Virus record (IMG/VR): IMGVR_UViG_3300037153_000341
Location: 1-31,843 of that record
DNA: 31,843 bases
Reading direction: 5' to 3' (one strand)
Source of the DNA: a virus
Positions 2,635-6,011 of this stretch are shown here, piece by piece (the first letter of the stretch is position 1; every line of letters starts with the position of its first letter). The notes beneath the pieces are model-generated. The model ran no database searches, was not told the origin of the DNA, and saw nothing but the letters and a program-made list of their open reading frames with translations. A program made the translations under genes and the position numbers.

Positions 2635-2690
2635 GCGACCGGCCGACGATCCCGCAGTCACTCCCGCCCGGCGGCGGCGACACCGTATGA
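2631..2690 (+). CDS. Possible 19-residue coupled ORF
   Basis: MSDRPTIPQSLPPGGGDTV, starting in the ATGA of the preceding gene and ending in the ATGA of the next. It carries no domain and may serve only to carry ribosomes across the gap. Similar mini-frames occur at 6884, 7196 and 12441. Confidence 0.3.
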   Translation: MSDRPTIPQSLPPGGGDTV

Positions 2691-2965
2691 CCGGCGAACG
2701 GCTCCTCAAAGCACGTGACGTCGCCGACCTCCTCGGGTTGGAAGTCGCGACCGTGGTCGACCGGTTCCAACGCGGCGACCTACCGGGATTCCGGCTGTAC
2801 GGCAACCGGCCCGGCAGCCCGCTCCGGTTCCGGCTGTCCGAGATCGAAGCCTGGCTGGAAACCGAGTGTCGGCCCCCACGCGGCGAGCAGCGTGTGGCGG
2901 CTGCGGCGGCGGAGGTTGAGTTCGATGCGAAACAACTCCTATGGCCGCTCAGGCTGCGACCGTGA
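2687..2965 (+). CDS. Excisionase-like helix-turn-helix protein
   Basis: A 92-residue protein with a MerR/excisionase-type winged HTH: LLKARDVADLLGLEVATVVD then FQRGDLPGFRLYG and RFRLSEIEAWLE. The order helix-turn-helix, G-x-LPG wing, then a helix ending in W-L-E is the HTH_17/Xis pattern. It lies two genes upstream of the integrase, so a role as recombination directionality factor is plausible, possibly shared with or contested by the HTH protein at 2941. The start overlaps the 19-residue frame. The C-terminal 30 residues are Ala-rich and extend past the start of the next gene by 25 bases. Confidence 0.7.
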   Translation: MTGERLLKARDVADLLGLEVATVVDRFQRGDLPGFRLYGNRPGSPLRFRLSEIEAWLETECRPPRGEQRVAAAAAEVEFDAKQLLWPLRLRP

Positions 2966-3165
2966 CCGTCGTGCCCGTCGTCCTCACGAAAGCCGAGGCG
3001 GCGGCGCGCGCGCGTGTCAGCGTCCGCACGCTCGAGCGGGCGATGGCCGCCGGTGAGCTTCGCTACTCCGGCGGCCGCACCACCTACCGCGTCCTCATCC
3101 GGCCGGAATGGCTCGACGAGTGGATCGACCGAAGAGGCATAGACCGCGGCGGGAACCAGGACTAG
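2941..3165 (+). CDS. Second excisionase-like HTH protein
   Basis: A 74-residue protein. VLTKAEAAARARVSVRTLER forms the HTH, followed by AMAAGELRYSGGRTTYRVLI as the wing and PEWLDEWIDRRG as the final helix. This is the classic small Xis layout and the closest HTH gene to the integrase (34 bases away). Best candidate for the excisionase that drives attL x attR recombination; by analogy it would bind direct repeats in the attachment region at 4541-4979. The start ATG lies within the end of the preceding gene. Confidence 0.7.
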   Translation: MAAQAATVTVVPVVLTKAEAAARARVSVRTLERAMAAGELRYSGGRTTYRVLIRPEWLDEWIDRRGIDRGGNQD

Positions 3166-3198: not shown

Positions 3199-4437
3199 GT
3201 GACTATGCCCACGCTCCTTCCCGGCGTACGGCTCCACCCGAACGGGGCGAGCTACCGAGTACGCGTCCATCCCTTCCCCGACGAGGCCGGGTTCGCCACC
3301 CCCGAGGAGGCAAACGAACATTCGCTCCTTCTGCGCCGCTTGAAGCGCGAGGGCGTCACCGTGAAGCCGCGGTGCATGACGCTCGCCGACGCGGCCCGCG
3401 AGCAGCTCGACCGGCTTCGCAAGGTCGGCGGCCGCCGTGGCCGCCCCTACACGGCCGACTCCCTGGAGCAGGCGGCGATCTGCGCCCGGCCGTGGACGGG
3501 CGAGCCGTGCAAGCCGCGCAAACGGAACGGCGAGACGATCCTTCCGCCGGCGCCGGTCGACGAGAACGGCGTCCCGTTCGCGAAGACGCCGGTCGCCCAG
3601 CTCCGCGTCCGCCCGCTCGAGACCTACCTCGAGCGGCGCGCCGAGACGACCCCGCGCGCCGCCGTCGGCGAATACCAGTTCCTCGTCCAGACCTTGAAGC
3701 TCGCCGCCCGCCGCGGCGAGAAGTTCGACCAGGCGCTCCTCGAGCTCGAGCCCGTCCGCCGACGGCCAGGCCCCAGACGCCACCGGCTCTCACGCGACGA
3801 GCTCCGGTTCGCCGCCGCCCGGATCCCCGAGCACGTCCGTCGCGGTGTCCTCCTCGGCGCCACCCTCGGCGGGCGCACCACCGAGACCCTGTCGATCGAG
3901 GACGGCTGGCTCGACCTCGACCGCCGCATCCTCACCGTGCCCGACTGGGCGACGAAGGAACGGCGGGAGAAGATCGTCGACCTGCTGCCGGAGGAGGTCG
4001 CCCTGTTTCGCGAGCAGCGGCTCGTCCGCTCCCCGAACGCGGCGCTCGGCGCCAATGGCACCCGGCTTCTTTTCCCCCGCCTCGGCGGCACCCCCTACGG
4101 GCGCAAAGGATTGTGGGCCGACCTCACCCGGGTCGTCCGTGTGAAGGCGGCCGGCGACTGGCGCGAGGCGCATGGCCTCCCGGAGGGGGCGACGACGCCG
4201 TTCGACCGGTTCACCCCCTACGACCTGCGCCGCTCGGCCGCGACGCTTCTGCGCGAGATGAGCATCTCGCCCGAGCTCGCCGCCGCGCGGCTCGGCCACA
4301 AGGACGCCGGCCATCTCCTCCTGACCGTCTACGCCGACGCCCGCCGCGAGCGGCTGAAGGCGGAGCTCGACGAGATCGCGGCCGAAGGTGGCATCGATGC
4401 CCGCCTCGAGCGGCGCGCGGGGGGCGCAACGGCATGA
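3199..4437 (+). CDS. int: Tyrosine-family integrase
   Basis: A 412-residue site-specific recombinase. The catalytic domain shows Arg226 (LGGRTTETLSI), Lys253 (ATKERREKI), Arg344 in YDLRRSAATLL, His367 in ARLGHKDAGH and the nucleophile Tyr378 in LLLTVYADA. The first residue of the usual HxxR box is Tyr341 rather than His, a tolerated but less common change. The N-terminal part has an arm-binding-like segment (GVRLHPNGASYRVRVHPFP) and a core-binding region. GTG 3199 follows GGAGG at 3189-3193 by 5 bases; ATG 3205 is an alternative. It lies beside the tRNA-derived attachment core and phased repeats immediately downstream, which are its likely substrates. Confidence 0.92.
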   Translation: MTMPTLLPGVRLHPNGASYRVRVHPFPDEAGFATPEEANEHSLLLRRLKREGVTVKPRCMTLADAAREQLDRLRKVGGRRGRPYTADSLEQAAICARPWTGEPCKPRKRNGETILPPAPVDENGVPFAKTPVAQLRVRPLETYLERRAETTPRAAVGEYQFLVQTLKLAARRGEKFDQALLELEPVRRRPGPRRHRLSRDELRFAAARIPEHVRRGVLLGATLGGRTTETLSIEDGWLDLDRRILTVPDWATKERREKIVDLLPEEVALFREQRLVRSPNAALGANGTRLLFPRLGGTPYGRKGLWADLTRVVRVKAAGDWREAHGLPEGATTPFDRFTPYDLRRSAATLLREMSISPELAAARLGHKDAGHLLLTVYADARRERLKAELDEIAAEGGIDARLERRAGGATA

Positions 4438-4540: not shown

Positions 4541-4559
4541 TTTGGTCCCGGTTTGGTCC
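4541..4559 (+). repeat. Left pair of attP arm-type repeats
   Basis: Two direct copies of TTTGGTCC at 4541-4548 and 4552-4559, exactly 11 bases apart. The same octamer recurs three times at 4768-4797 with the same spacing and orientation. They lie about 40 bases left of the tRNA-like core and are likely integrase arm-binding sites; that role is inferred from phage attP architecture. Confidence 0.6.
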
Positions 4560-4597
4560 GAAGCTCCGCAAACACCTCTTTTGCAGGGGTTTTCCAC

Positions 4598-4621
4598 TGC
4601 GGGACTAGGATTCGAACCTAG
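4598..4621 (-). other. attP: attP core: 3' end of a tRNA gene
   Basis: On the minus strand CTAGG-TTCGAAT-CCTAG forms a perfect 5-bp T-stem with a 7-base loop (4605-4621), followed by TCCCGCA (4598-4604) in the position of the 3' acceptor strand. The rest of a tRNA (anticodon and D arms) is not recognisable upstream on that strand, so this is a fragment and not a functional tRNA gene. Many phages with tyrosine integrases carry the tRNA 3' end as their attP core so that the host tRNA is restored on integration. It lies 161 bases past the integrase stop. The host tRNA would be expected to begin TGCGGGA. Confidence 0.65.
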
Positions 4622-4631
4622 CACCCCGCCT

Positions 4632-4666
4632 TCGCCGCCTCCCGACAGGGCTCGCCGCCTCCCGAC
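4632..4666 (+). repeat. 15-bp direct repeat pair beside the att core
   Basis: TCGCCGCCTCCCGAC occurs at 4632-4646 and again at 4652-4666, a 20-base period (about two helical turns). It lies between the tRNA-like core and the terminator. It may be a binding site for Int, Xis or a host factor; no direct evidence. Confidence 0.45.
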
Positions 4667-4676
4667 GCTTTCCGCC

Positions 4677-4702
4677 AAAACCCCCGCACGTCGGGGGTTT
4701 TT
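4677..4702. terminator. Strong bidirectional intrinsic terminator
   Basis: A perfect 10-bp stem: AAAACCCCCG (4677-4686), loop CACGT, and CGGGGGTTTT (4692-4701), followed by a fifth T. The A-run on one side and T-run on the other make it work in both directions. It closes the integrase transcript on the + strand and would insulate the operon starting at 5046. Confidence 0.75.
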
Positions 4703-4767
4703 CACGTGCAACACCCGCCAAGCCCCGCCAGCGCCCGACACGTTCCGCCAGGCTCGGGGAGCCCCGA

Positions 4768-4797
4768 TTTGGTCCGGATTTGGTCCGGATTTGGTCC
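4768..4797 (+). repeat. Right triplet of attP arm-type repeats
   Basis: Three direct copies of TTTGGTCC at 4768-4775, 4779-4786 and 4790-4797, each 11 bases from the next and separated by GGA. They are the same octamer, strand and period as the pair at 4541-4559. With the core between them this gives an asymmetric two-plus-three arm arrangement. Confidence 0.6.
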
Positions 4798-4945
4798 AAG
4801 GGAAGGTGCCGATTACCTGATGGGCAACAGCGCCGCCATCTCGTCTACGTCCCGAACACCCGCGGTGCTCCACCGGCCGAAGCCGGGCCCAGGCCGGTCT
4901 AGGCGAAAAGGCTGGTTTAGCAGGGGTTTCCCGCTCCGGCCGACT

Positions 4946-4980
4946 TGGAGCAGACCTGGAGCAGACGCCTTGCTCCAGGT
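4946..4980. repeat. Phased direct repeats plus inverted copy upstream of the second operon
   Basis: TGGAGCAGAC occurs at 4946-4955 and 4957-4966 (11-base period). The second copy also forms the left arm of a perfect 10-bp inverted repeat: ACCTGGAGCA (4954-4963), 7-base loop, TGCTCCAGGT (4971-4980). There is no T-tract, so it is more likely a protein-binding site than a terminator. It lies 66 bases before the methyltransferase ATG and may regulate that operon or bind an excisionase. Confidence 0.45.
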
Positions 4981-5045
4981 GCTTGTGGGCGCCGGGTGGA
5001 CGCCGAGCCCGTGGCGGACGTGGTGGCGACCGTGAAGGCTGCCGG

Positions 5046-6011
5046 ATGACCCAGCTCGAGCTCGATCTGTTCCGCGACGCCGTCACGACGACGAGCTGGG
5101 CACCGGTCCGCGAGCTCAGCTACGACGAGTGGCTCCGCCACGGCCACACGATCGCCCGCGTTCAGGACGCCTCGATGTGGTGGCTTGGCGACTGGTGGCG
5201 TTACGGCGAGCACCGCTACGGCGACCGAGCCCGCGCCGCCGAGCTCGAGCTCCCCTGGGCGTTCCAGACCTGCATGGACGCCGGCTGGGTCGCCAGCCGC
5301 ATCGGAACCTCGCGCCGGCGCGAGGTTCTCTCATGGTCGCATCACCGCGAGGTCGCCGCGCTCGAACCGGACGAGCAGGACCGCTGGCTCGCCGCTGCCG
5401 AGCAGGGCGATGACCCTGACGACGACGGCGAGCACTGGACGCGCGCCGAGTTACGGGCCGAGCTCCGGTCGCGCCGGTCGCTCAACGCGCCGGCGCCGCC
5501 CGAGGGCCGCTACCGCTGCCTCGTGATCGATCCGCCCTGGCCGGTCGAGAAGATCGTCCGCGACGTCCGCCCGCGGCAGGGGGCGGCGCTCGACTACCCG
5601 ACAATGGAGCTCGAGCAGATCGCCGAGCTTCCCGTCGGCGAGCTCGCGGCCGACGACGGCTGCCACGTCTACCTCTGGACGACGCACCGCTACGCCCCGG
5701 CCGCATTCGAGCTCCTCGAGAGATGGGGCGCCGTCTACGAATGCCTCCTGACCTGGGTGAAGCCGACCGGCATGACGCCGTTCTCGTGGCTCTACGACAC
5801 CGAGCACATCCTCTTCGCCCGCATCGGTTCGCTCCCGCTCGAGAGGCTCGGACTACCGCTGTCGATCGCCGCGCCGACCGGCGGGCATTCCGTCAAGCCC
5901 GACGGGTTCTACGACCGCGTCCGGGCCGCGAGCCCGGAGCCGCGGCTCGAGATGTTCGCGCGCCAGCGACGGGACGGCTTCACGCCCTGGGGCGACGAGG
6001 TTGCCGCGTGA
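5046..6011 (+). CDS. MT-A70-family DNA adenine methyltransferase
   Basis: A 321-residue protein. The C-terminal two-thirds is an MT-A70 methyltransferase: catalytic DPPW at residues 162-165 (VIDPPWPVEKI), the HVYLWTTHRYAP strand, LLTWVKPTGMTPF, and HSVKPDGFYDRV followed by EMFARQ and a final GWGDE-like end (TPWGDE). Family members transfer a methyl group from SAM to N6 of adenine; phage versions usually protect DNA from host restriction. The N-terminal 100 residues contain SYDEWLRHGHTIARVQDASM and WWLGDWWRYGEHRYGD, a domain also seen in actinobacterial plasmid and phage proteins of ParB or regulatory type. It opens the rightward replication operon after the att region and overlaps the next gene by GTGA. 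Confidence 0.88.
   Translation: MTQLELDLFRDAVTTTSWAPVRELSYDEWLRHGHTIARVQDASMWWLGDWWRYGEHRYGDRARAAELELPWAFQTCMDAGWVASRIGTSRRREVLSWSHHREVAALEPDEQDRWLAAAEQGDDPDDDGEHWTRAELRAELRSRRSLNAPAPPEGRYRCLVIDPPWPVEKIVRDVRPRQGAALDYPTMELEQIAELPVGELAADDGCHVYLWTTHRYAPAAFELLERWGAVYECLLTWVKPTGMTPFSWLYDTEHILFARIGSLPLERLGLPLSIAAPTGGHSVKPDGFYDRVRAASPEPRLEMFARQRRDGFTPWGDEVAA

What the first reader, a model, noticed from the sequence alone, without database searches (positions are those of the whole stretch)
4541..4797. attP with tRNA-derived core and 11-bp-phased arm repeats (2 left, 3 right)
TTTGGTCC occurs five times in one orientation: twice left (4541, 4552) and three times right (4768, 4779, 4790), always 11 bases apart, about one helical turn. 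Between them lies a perfect T-arm plus acceptor strand of a tRNA on the minus strand. The integrase stops just upstream. Phased same-face arm sites on both sides of a tRNA core are the expected design for a tyrosine integrase, but I do not know this octamer from a described system.
Basis: partly seen in the sequence, partly recalled or inferred. Interest (0 to 1): 0.7.

Follow-up and report, generated by a model that had tools for sequence, protein, structure and literature searches.

The report
Phage attachment site with phased integrase-binding repeats
This is the site a temperate soil-type phage most likely uses to splice itself into a host tRNA-Gln gene; it is a textbook layout with a lineage-specific recognition word, whose 11-base rhythm turns out to be kept across its relatives even where the word itself has changed.

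Summary
TTTGGTCC occurs exactly five times in the window, all in one orientation, two left and three right of a tRNA-derived core, each neighbour 11 bp apart (0.46 expected). The core is the T-arm, acceptor strand and discriminator of a tRNA-Gln, found in Solirubrobacterales and other Thermoleophilia. The upstream gene is a tyrosine integrase with excisionase-like HTH genes before it. A phage whose integrase is about 50% identical has the same attP element by element, with another tRNA core. More distant integrases in Thermoleophilia chromosomes sit next to tRNA 3' ends with a pair of 11-bp-spaced repeats between; the word differs by lineage (TGGTCA, TGGACG, TGGTCAA, GGGATG) but the 11-bp rhythm stays. 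Phage P2's annotated integrase arm sites are also 11-bp direct repeats, TGTGGTCA/TGTGGACA, and mycobacteriophage Pixie has the same 2+3 direct layout. So this is an ordinary lambda/P2-type attP: a new member of a known kind. No binding was tested, no lysogen of this phage was found, and the integrase N-domain could not be assigned to an arm-binding family by profile.

The parts
3199..4437 (+). tyrosine-recombinase integrase gene (412 aa, GTG start)
   Evidence: PF00589 E 1.2e-8; PHROG 1 integrase E 1e-25; R226, R344, H367, Y378 conserved in 8 homologues
2687..2965 (+). excisionase-like HTH_17 protein, candidate recombination directionality factor
   Evidence: HTH_17 E 6.4e-9; PHROG 66 excisionase E 2e-8; start chosen by inspection
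2941..3165 (+). second excisionase-like HTH_17 protein
   Evidence: HTH_17 E 3.6e-7; PHROG 66 E 3e-7
4541..4548 (+). left arm-type site 1 (TTTGGTCC)
   Evidence: aligned position in L036 is TCTGGTCC
4552..4559 (+). left arm-type site 2 (TTTGGTCC)
   Evidence: conserved in L036
4595..4621 (-). attP core: 3' end of tRNA-Gln (T-arm, acceptor strand, discriminator G, two more bases), 27 bp identical to L049
4610..4616 (-). T-loop (7 nt) between two 5-bp inverted T-stem halves: predicted overlap (crossover) region
   Evidence: sequence; inferred from tRNA geometry, not tested
4632..4646 (+). accessory direct repeat 1 (TCGCCGCCTCCCGAC), candidate excisionase/bending-protein site
   Evidence: L036 has 20-bp-spaced repeats in the same place
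4652..4666 (+). accessory direct repeat 2, 20 bp from repeat 1
4677..4701 (+). hairpin with T-run (terminator-like) between core and right arm
   Evidence: 10-bp perfect arms; z -2.31; counterpart in L036
4726..4739 (+). accessory repeat 3 (CGCCAGCGCCCGAC, diverged)
   Evidence: family D2
4768..4775 (+). right arm-type site 1 (TTTGGTCC)
4779..4786 (+). right arm-type site 2 (TTTGGTCC)
4790..4797 (+). right arm-type site 3 (TTTGGTCC)

Best explanation
4541-4797 is the attP of a temperate phage of Thermoleophilia-like actinobacteria. The integrase's C-terminal part cuts and exchanges strands at the T-loop of a tRNA-Gln sequence shared with the host chromosome, while its N-terminal part holds the TTTGGTCC arm sites (two on the int-proximal side, three on the far side). 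Sites one helical turn apart lie on one face of the DNA, so adjacent integrase protomers can bridge arm and core in an intasome. Because the phage carries the tRNA 3' end, integration rebuilds an intact tRNA-Gln next to int. The HTH_17 proteins, possibly through the 20-bp-spaced accessory repeats, would set direction (excision). Shown: repeats, core identity, integrase family, conserved anatomy. Inferred: binding, crossover point, excisionase role, host.
For: Five octamers at 11 bp. Core is a tRNA-Gln 3' end present in Thermoleophilia. Adjacent integrase and excisionase-like genes. Same attP order in L036, integrase about 50% identical, with a different tRNA core. In Thermoleophilia chromosomes related integrases face tRNA 3' ends: of 15 such loci the 11-bp lag gives the unique longest repeat in 10 and a tie in 3, with P at most 0.016 against shuffles in 11 of them. 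Two integrated relatives have 26-27 bp direct repeats of the tRNA 3' end at the far end of the element. P2's annotated Int arms are 11-bp direct repeats with TGTGGTCA/TGTGGACA. Unrelated integrases with curated arm-binding domains (L011, L024: PF12167; L023: PF14657) have TTTGGTCC pairs beside int. A Solirubrobacterales genome has TTTGGTCC-N3-TTTGGTCC 57 bp beyond a tRNA-Lys 3' end. Structure model resembles Tn1549 and lambda Int.
Against: No lysogen of this phage or close relative was found; no close integrase in 396 actinobacterial genomes or annotated phages. The N-domain matches no Pfam arm-binding family and is modelled at low confidence. The right arm was not recovered at the far end of the G264 element and only weakly in G092. 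L195, L205, L210 and L218 do not show a clear 11-bp signal.
Confidence: 0.93

Rival explanations
1. The octamers are operators for a repressor or regulator (for example of int or of the downstream MT-A70 gene) and only happen to flank a tRNA fragment.
For: Phased direct repeats are also typical of regulator sites; the right cluster lies about 250 bp before the MT-A70 gene. Similar arrays occur in some phages without an integrase nearby (L006, L029).
Against: Symmetric placement around a tRNA core and conservation of both clusters with the core in L036; 11-bp pairs between int and tRNA in many relatives with different downstream genes; P2 precedent.
Confidence: 0.04
2. The arrays are replication iterons (an origin), as TTTGGTCC arrays in other contigs lie inside a gene for a helix-turn-helix, probably replication, protein.
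For: L009, L019, L034 and similar contigs carry 11-bp-spaced TTTGGTCC in such a gene.
Against: In the window the repeats are outside any such gene and bracket an int-adjacent tRNA core; no initiator gene is adjacent.
Confidence: 0.02
3. The tRNA fragment is a passive relic and the real attP lies elsewhere, the octamers being unrelated repeats.
For: No lysogen junction was seen for this phage.
Against: T-arm to discriminator is kept exactly, at the expected place 3' of int, with flanking repeats conserved in L036.
Confidence: 0.01

Closest known systems
Mycobacteriophage Pixie (subcluster K3) attP, PMC3203893
   Same: Pair of arm sites left of a tRNA core and three right, all direct; terminator-like hairpin near the core in its sequence; tRNA 3' end core
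   Different: Arm word TTTGGGTACAC with 12-14 bp spacing, an extra inverted site, attP 5' of int, tRNA-Lys
Mycobacteriophage cluster J (Omega, BAKA) attP, PMC3706429
   Same: attP 3' of int, tRNA core about 100 bp from the int stop, direct-repeat arm pairs on both sides, HTH candidates upstream
   Different: Pairs on both sides (2+2), arm consensus TGCATAC.., 44-bp core in tRNA-Leu
Bacteriophage P2 attP
   Same: Annotated Int arm sites are 11-bp-spaced direct repeats with a TGTGG(T/A)C kernel; all in one orientation on both sides; int-proximal arm at the end of int
   Different: 2+2 sites; annotated core is not described as a tRNA; IHF and Cox sites annotated; integrase matched only at weak structural level
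Mycobacteriophage CrimD (subcluster K1) attP, PMC3203893
   Same: 24-bp core that is the extreme 3' end of a tmRNA including the T-stem; 11-bp arm repeats in pairs; terminator between core and right arm
   Different: Right pair inverted relative to left; attP 5' of int

Membership tests
Tyrosine recombinase (phage integrase) family | Catalytic domain with R, HxxR, H/W, Y | tested here: met
   PF00589 above its cut-off; R226, R344, H367, Y378 conserved; the H of HxxR is Y341 here, as in L011/L024
Arm-binding (lambda-type, two-site) integrase | N-terminal arm-DNA-binding domain | tested here: inconclusive
   No Pfam arm-binding hit; in-register but weak profile match to L023's PF14657 domain, E 0.02, probability 2%; predicted strands and helix at low pLDDT
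Arm-binding (lambda-type, two-site) integrase | Repeated arm-type sites on both sides of the core | tested here: met
Arm-binding (lambda-type, two-site) integrase | Integrase binds the arm sites | not testable with these tools
   needs footprinting
tRNA-targeted attP that rebuilds the tRNA | Core identical to a host tRNA 3' end | tested here: met
   tRNA-Gln in 116 of 123 loci; 27 bp identical to L049
tRNA-targeted attP that rebuilds the tRNA | Observed attL/attR junctions in a lysogen | tested here: inconclusive
   none found for this phage in the genomes sampled, which hold no close relative of its integrase; seen for distant relatives in G264 and G092
P2-type arm sites | 11-bp direct repeats with TGTGG(A/T)CA | tested here: inconclusive
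   11-bp direct spacing and TGGTC kernel match, full word does not; resemblance only, not filed as P2-like

The most novel reading that the evidence does not exclude
Arm sites of distantly related integrases share a deep recognition code: a TGG(T/A)C-like kernel repeated at exactly 11 bp, with the flanking letters drifting together across all copies within a phage. If so, arm words and attP sites could be read from sequence across phyla, and this family would allow N-domain specificity to be mapped by covariation.
Probability: 0.25. Interest if true: 0.5.

Novelty: new member of a known kind. Interest (0 to 1): 0.33.

Why it matters
It gives a complete predicted integration module (integrase, excisionase candidates, attP, tRNA-Gln attB) for phages of Thermoleophilia, a soil lineage for which my literature search found almost nothing on phage integration. 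It could seed integration vectors there. The family-wide 11-bp rhythm with changing words is a simple rule for finding attP sites in metagenomic phages and a natural data set for matching integrase N-domains to DNA words.

Tried and rejected
Close integrase relatives: single-protein scan of IMG/VR gave none; the two-sequence profile gave only the L036 phage and a truncated copy; annotated phages none; 396 actinobacterial genomes none. Literature search for the octamer as text returned only chance strings. The 8-sequence alignment was too diverse for a collection scan; a scan with the tRNA-Val-type integrases gave one weak hit, not used. Structure prediction had only five rows and is of medium to low confidence; used only for the overall fold. 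N-domain searches against PDB and Pfam gave chance hits. Many of the 39 IMG/VR loci with the octamer pair show no integrase or tRNA and may be chance or other functions; they were not counted as support. The second repeat pair at 4946/4957 has no exact counterpart in IMG/VR.

Full report
Observation. TTTGGTCC is present exactly five times in the window, at the coordinates given, all on the + strand (mean 0.46 in shuffles, none of 100 reached five). In each cluster the start-to-start distance is 11 bp. The minus strand of 4598-4621 reads CTAGG-TTCGAAT-CCTAG-TCCCGCA: a perfect T-stem, T-loop, T-stem and the 3' strand of an acceptor stem. ARAGORN finds no complete tRNA in the window, and the 24-mer occurs once in the record, which is a virus record, as expected for an attP.

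The core. Among them are Solirubrobacterales and other Thermoleophilia. A Solirubrobacteraceae tRNA-Gln (L049) is identical to the window over 27 bp, 4595-4621, from the T-stem through the discriminator G and two bases beyond; identity stops just 5' of the T-stem. A crossover anywhere in this block leaves the tRNA sequence unchanged. The 7-nt T-loop between two 5-bp inverted halves is the natural overlap region; that point is inferred.

The genes. 3199-4437 is a tyrosine integrase (PF00589; PHROG 1). R226, R344, H367 and Y378 are invariant among eight relatives; the histidine of HxxR is Y341, as in two other integrases carrying the same octamer. Two overlapping HTH_17 genes before int match excisionase PHROG 66. 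The modelled fold is closest to Tn1549 and lambda integrases, at modest confidence.

A conserved attP. The IMG/VR scan for the octamer pair gave 39 loci. One, L036, encodes an integrase about 50% identical. Its attP aligns with the window's element by element: arm pair, a TTTGCAGGGnTTT block, a T-arm core of a different tRNA, 20-bp-spaced accessory repeats, a terminator-like hairpin followed by TTTTCACGTG, further accessory repeats, and the arm triple. The accessory repeats have changed together (CGCCGCC in the window, CGTCACC in L036), which suggests a second DNA-binding protein, probably an excisionase; this is inference.

The 11-bp rule. In 399 Thermoleophilia genomes, 21 have matches to the integrase profile. 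Where the integrase stop is followed by a tRNA reading towards it (15 loci, including the viral locus L024), the longest repeat between them is at lag 11 in 10 and tied in 3, of 24 lags tried; 11 of the 15 have P at most 0.016 against shuffles. The loci are partly related; the distinct lineages with the signal use AGTGGTCA, TGTGGACG, CCTGGTCAA, GTGGGATG, GCGGGATG and ACTTGACC next to Val, Glu, Gly and Ala tRNAs. So the word drifts and the helical phase stays. Two of these elements have their second tRNA 3'-end copy, 26-27 bp, 30 kb and 7.3 kb away; a clear right arm was not found there, only a weak pair in G092. In Solirubrobacterales the exact octamer pair occurs once in 232 genomes, 57 bp past a tRNA-Lys 3' end, though no integrase lies on that 7.4-kb contig and one match by count alone would be near chance.

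Known systems. P2's annotated Int-binding arms read TGTGGTCAATG/TGTGGACGTGA and TGTGGACACTG/TGTGGACACTC, 11 bp apart and direct. Pixie has a pair left and three right, all direct (PMC3203893), with 12-14 bp spacing. CrimD has a 24-bp tmRNA 3'-end core, 11-bp arm repeats and a terminator between core and right arm. Cluster J phages place attP 3' of int with tRNA core and direct-repeat pairs (PMC3706429). Rebuilding the tRNA at the junction is the usual case in actinobacteriophages (PMC10865867). Every component here has a precedent; the octamer, the target tRNA and the host lineage are new instances.

Limits. Arm binding is not tested. The N-terminal domain matches no curated arm-binding family; its profile aligns in register with the PF14657 domain of L023 but weakly. 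No lysogen of this phage was found. The host is inferred from the tRNA and from the integrase relatives.

Noticed in passing
window 4916-4980: A second pair of 11-bp-spaced repeats with a different word (TGGAGCAGAC at 4946 and 4957), overlapping a perfect 10-bp inverted repeat (4954-4963/4971-4980) and preceded by a 24-bp stretch 83% like the core-left flank (4916-4939 vs 4579-4602). Could be a relic attachment arm or an operator of the MT-A70 gene.
   Followed up: partly
L009:3976-4096, L019:2471-2587, L034:6670-6800, also L002, L008, L014, L016, L018, L033, L040: TTTGGTCC arrays at 11-bp multiples inside or beside a gene for a helix-turn-helix protein with a DQKRTK-type repetitive linker; looks like iterons inside a replication-type gene. 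No PHROG match for L009's protein.
   Followed up: partly
L006:690-900, L029, L031, L039: Repeated triples of TTTGGTCC at 11 bp, about 106 bp apart, in a non-coding stretch before a lysozyme-like gene of large phages; no integrase nearby.
   Followed up: no
L038:3677-3774: Seven TTTGGTCC in 3+3+1 blocks at 11-bp spacing with a conserved GTCCATGGTGCC spacer.
   Followed up: no
L222:1372-1519 (G390:C205): Solirubrobacterales chromosome with TTTGGTCC-CCA-TTTGGTCC just past a tRNA-Lys(TTT) 3' end and a minus-strand ORF resembling a NYN-type protein beyond it: probably one end of an integrated element.
   Followed up: partly
L090 about 150-245, compared with L145: Same MAG holds an intact tRNA-Gln and a second copy whose 5' half is replaced up to the anticodon: looks like a junction of another element at the same tRNA gene.
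   Followed up: no
window 2687-2965: The first HTH_17 protein also weakly matches NCBIfam MAD1 (E 2.3e-6, far below cut-off), an antiphage-system HTH protein; more likely excisionase-like.
   Followed up: no
window 4983-6011: An MT-A70 family methyltransferase gene (PF05063) follows attP directly.
   Followed up: no
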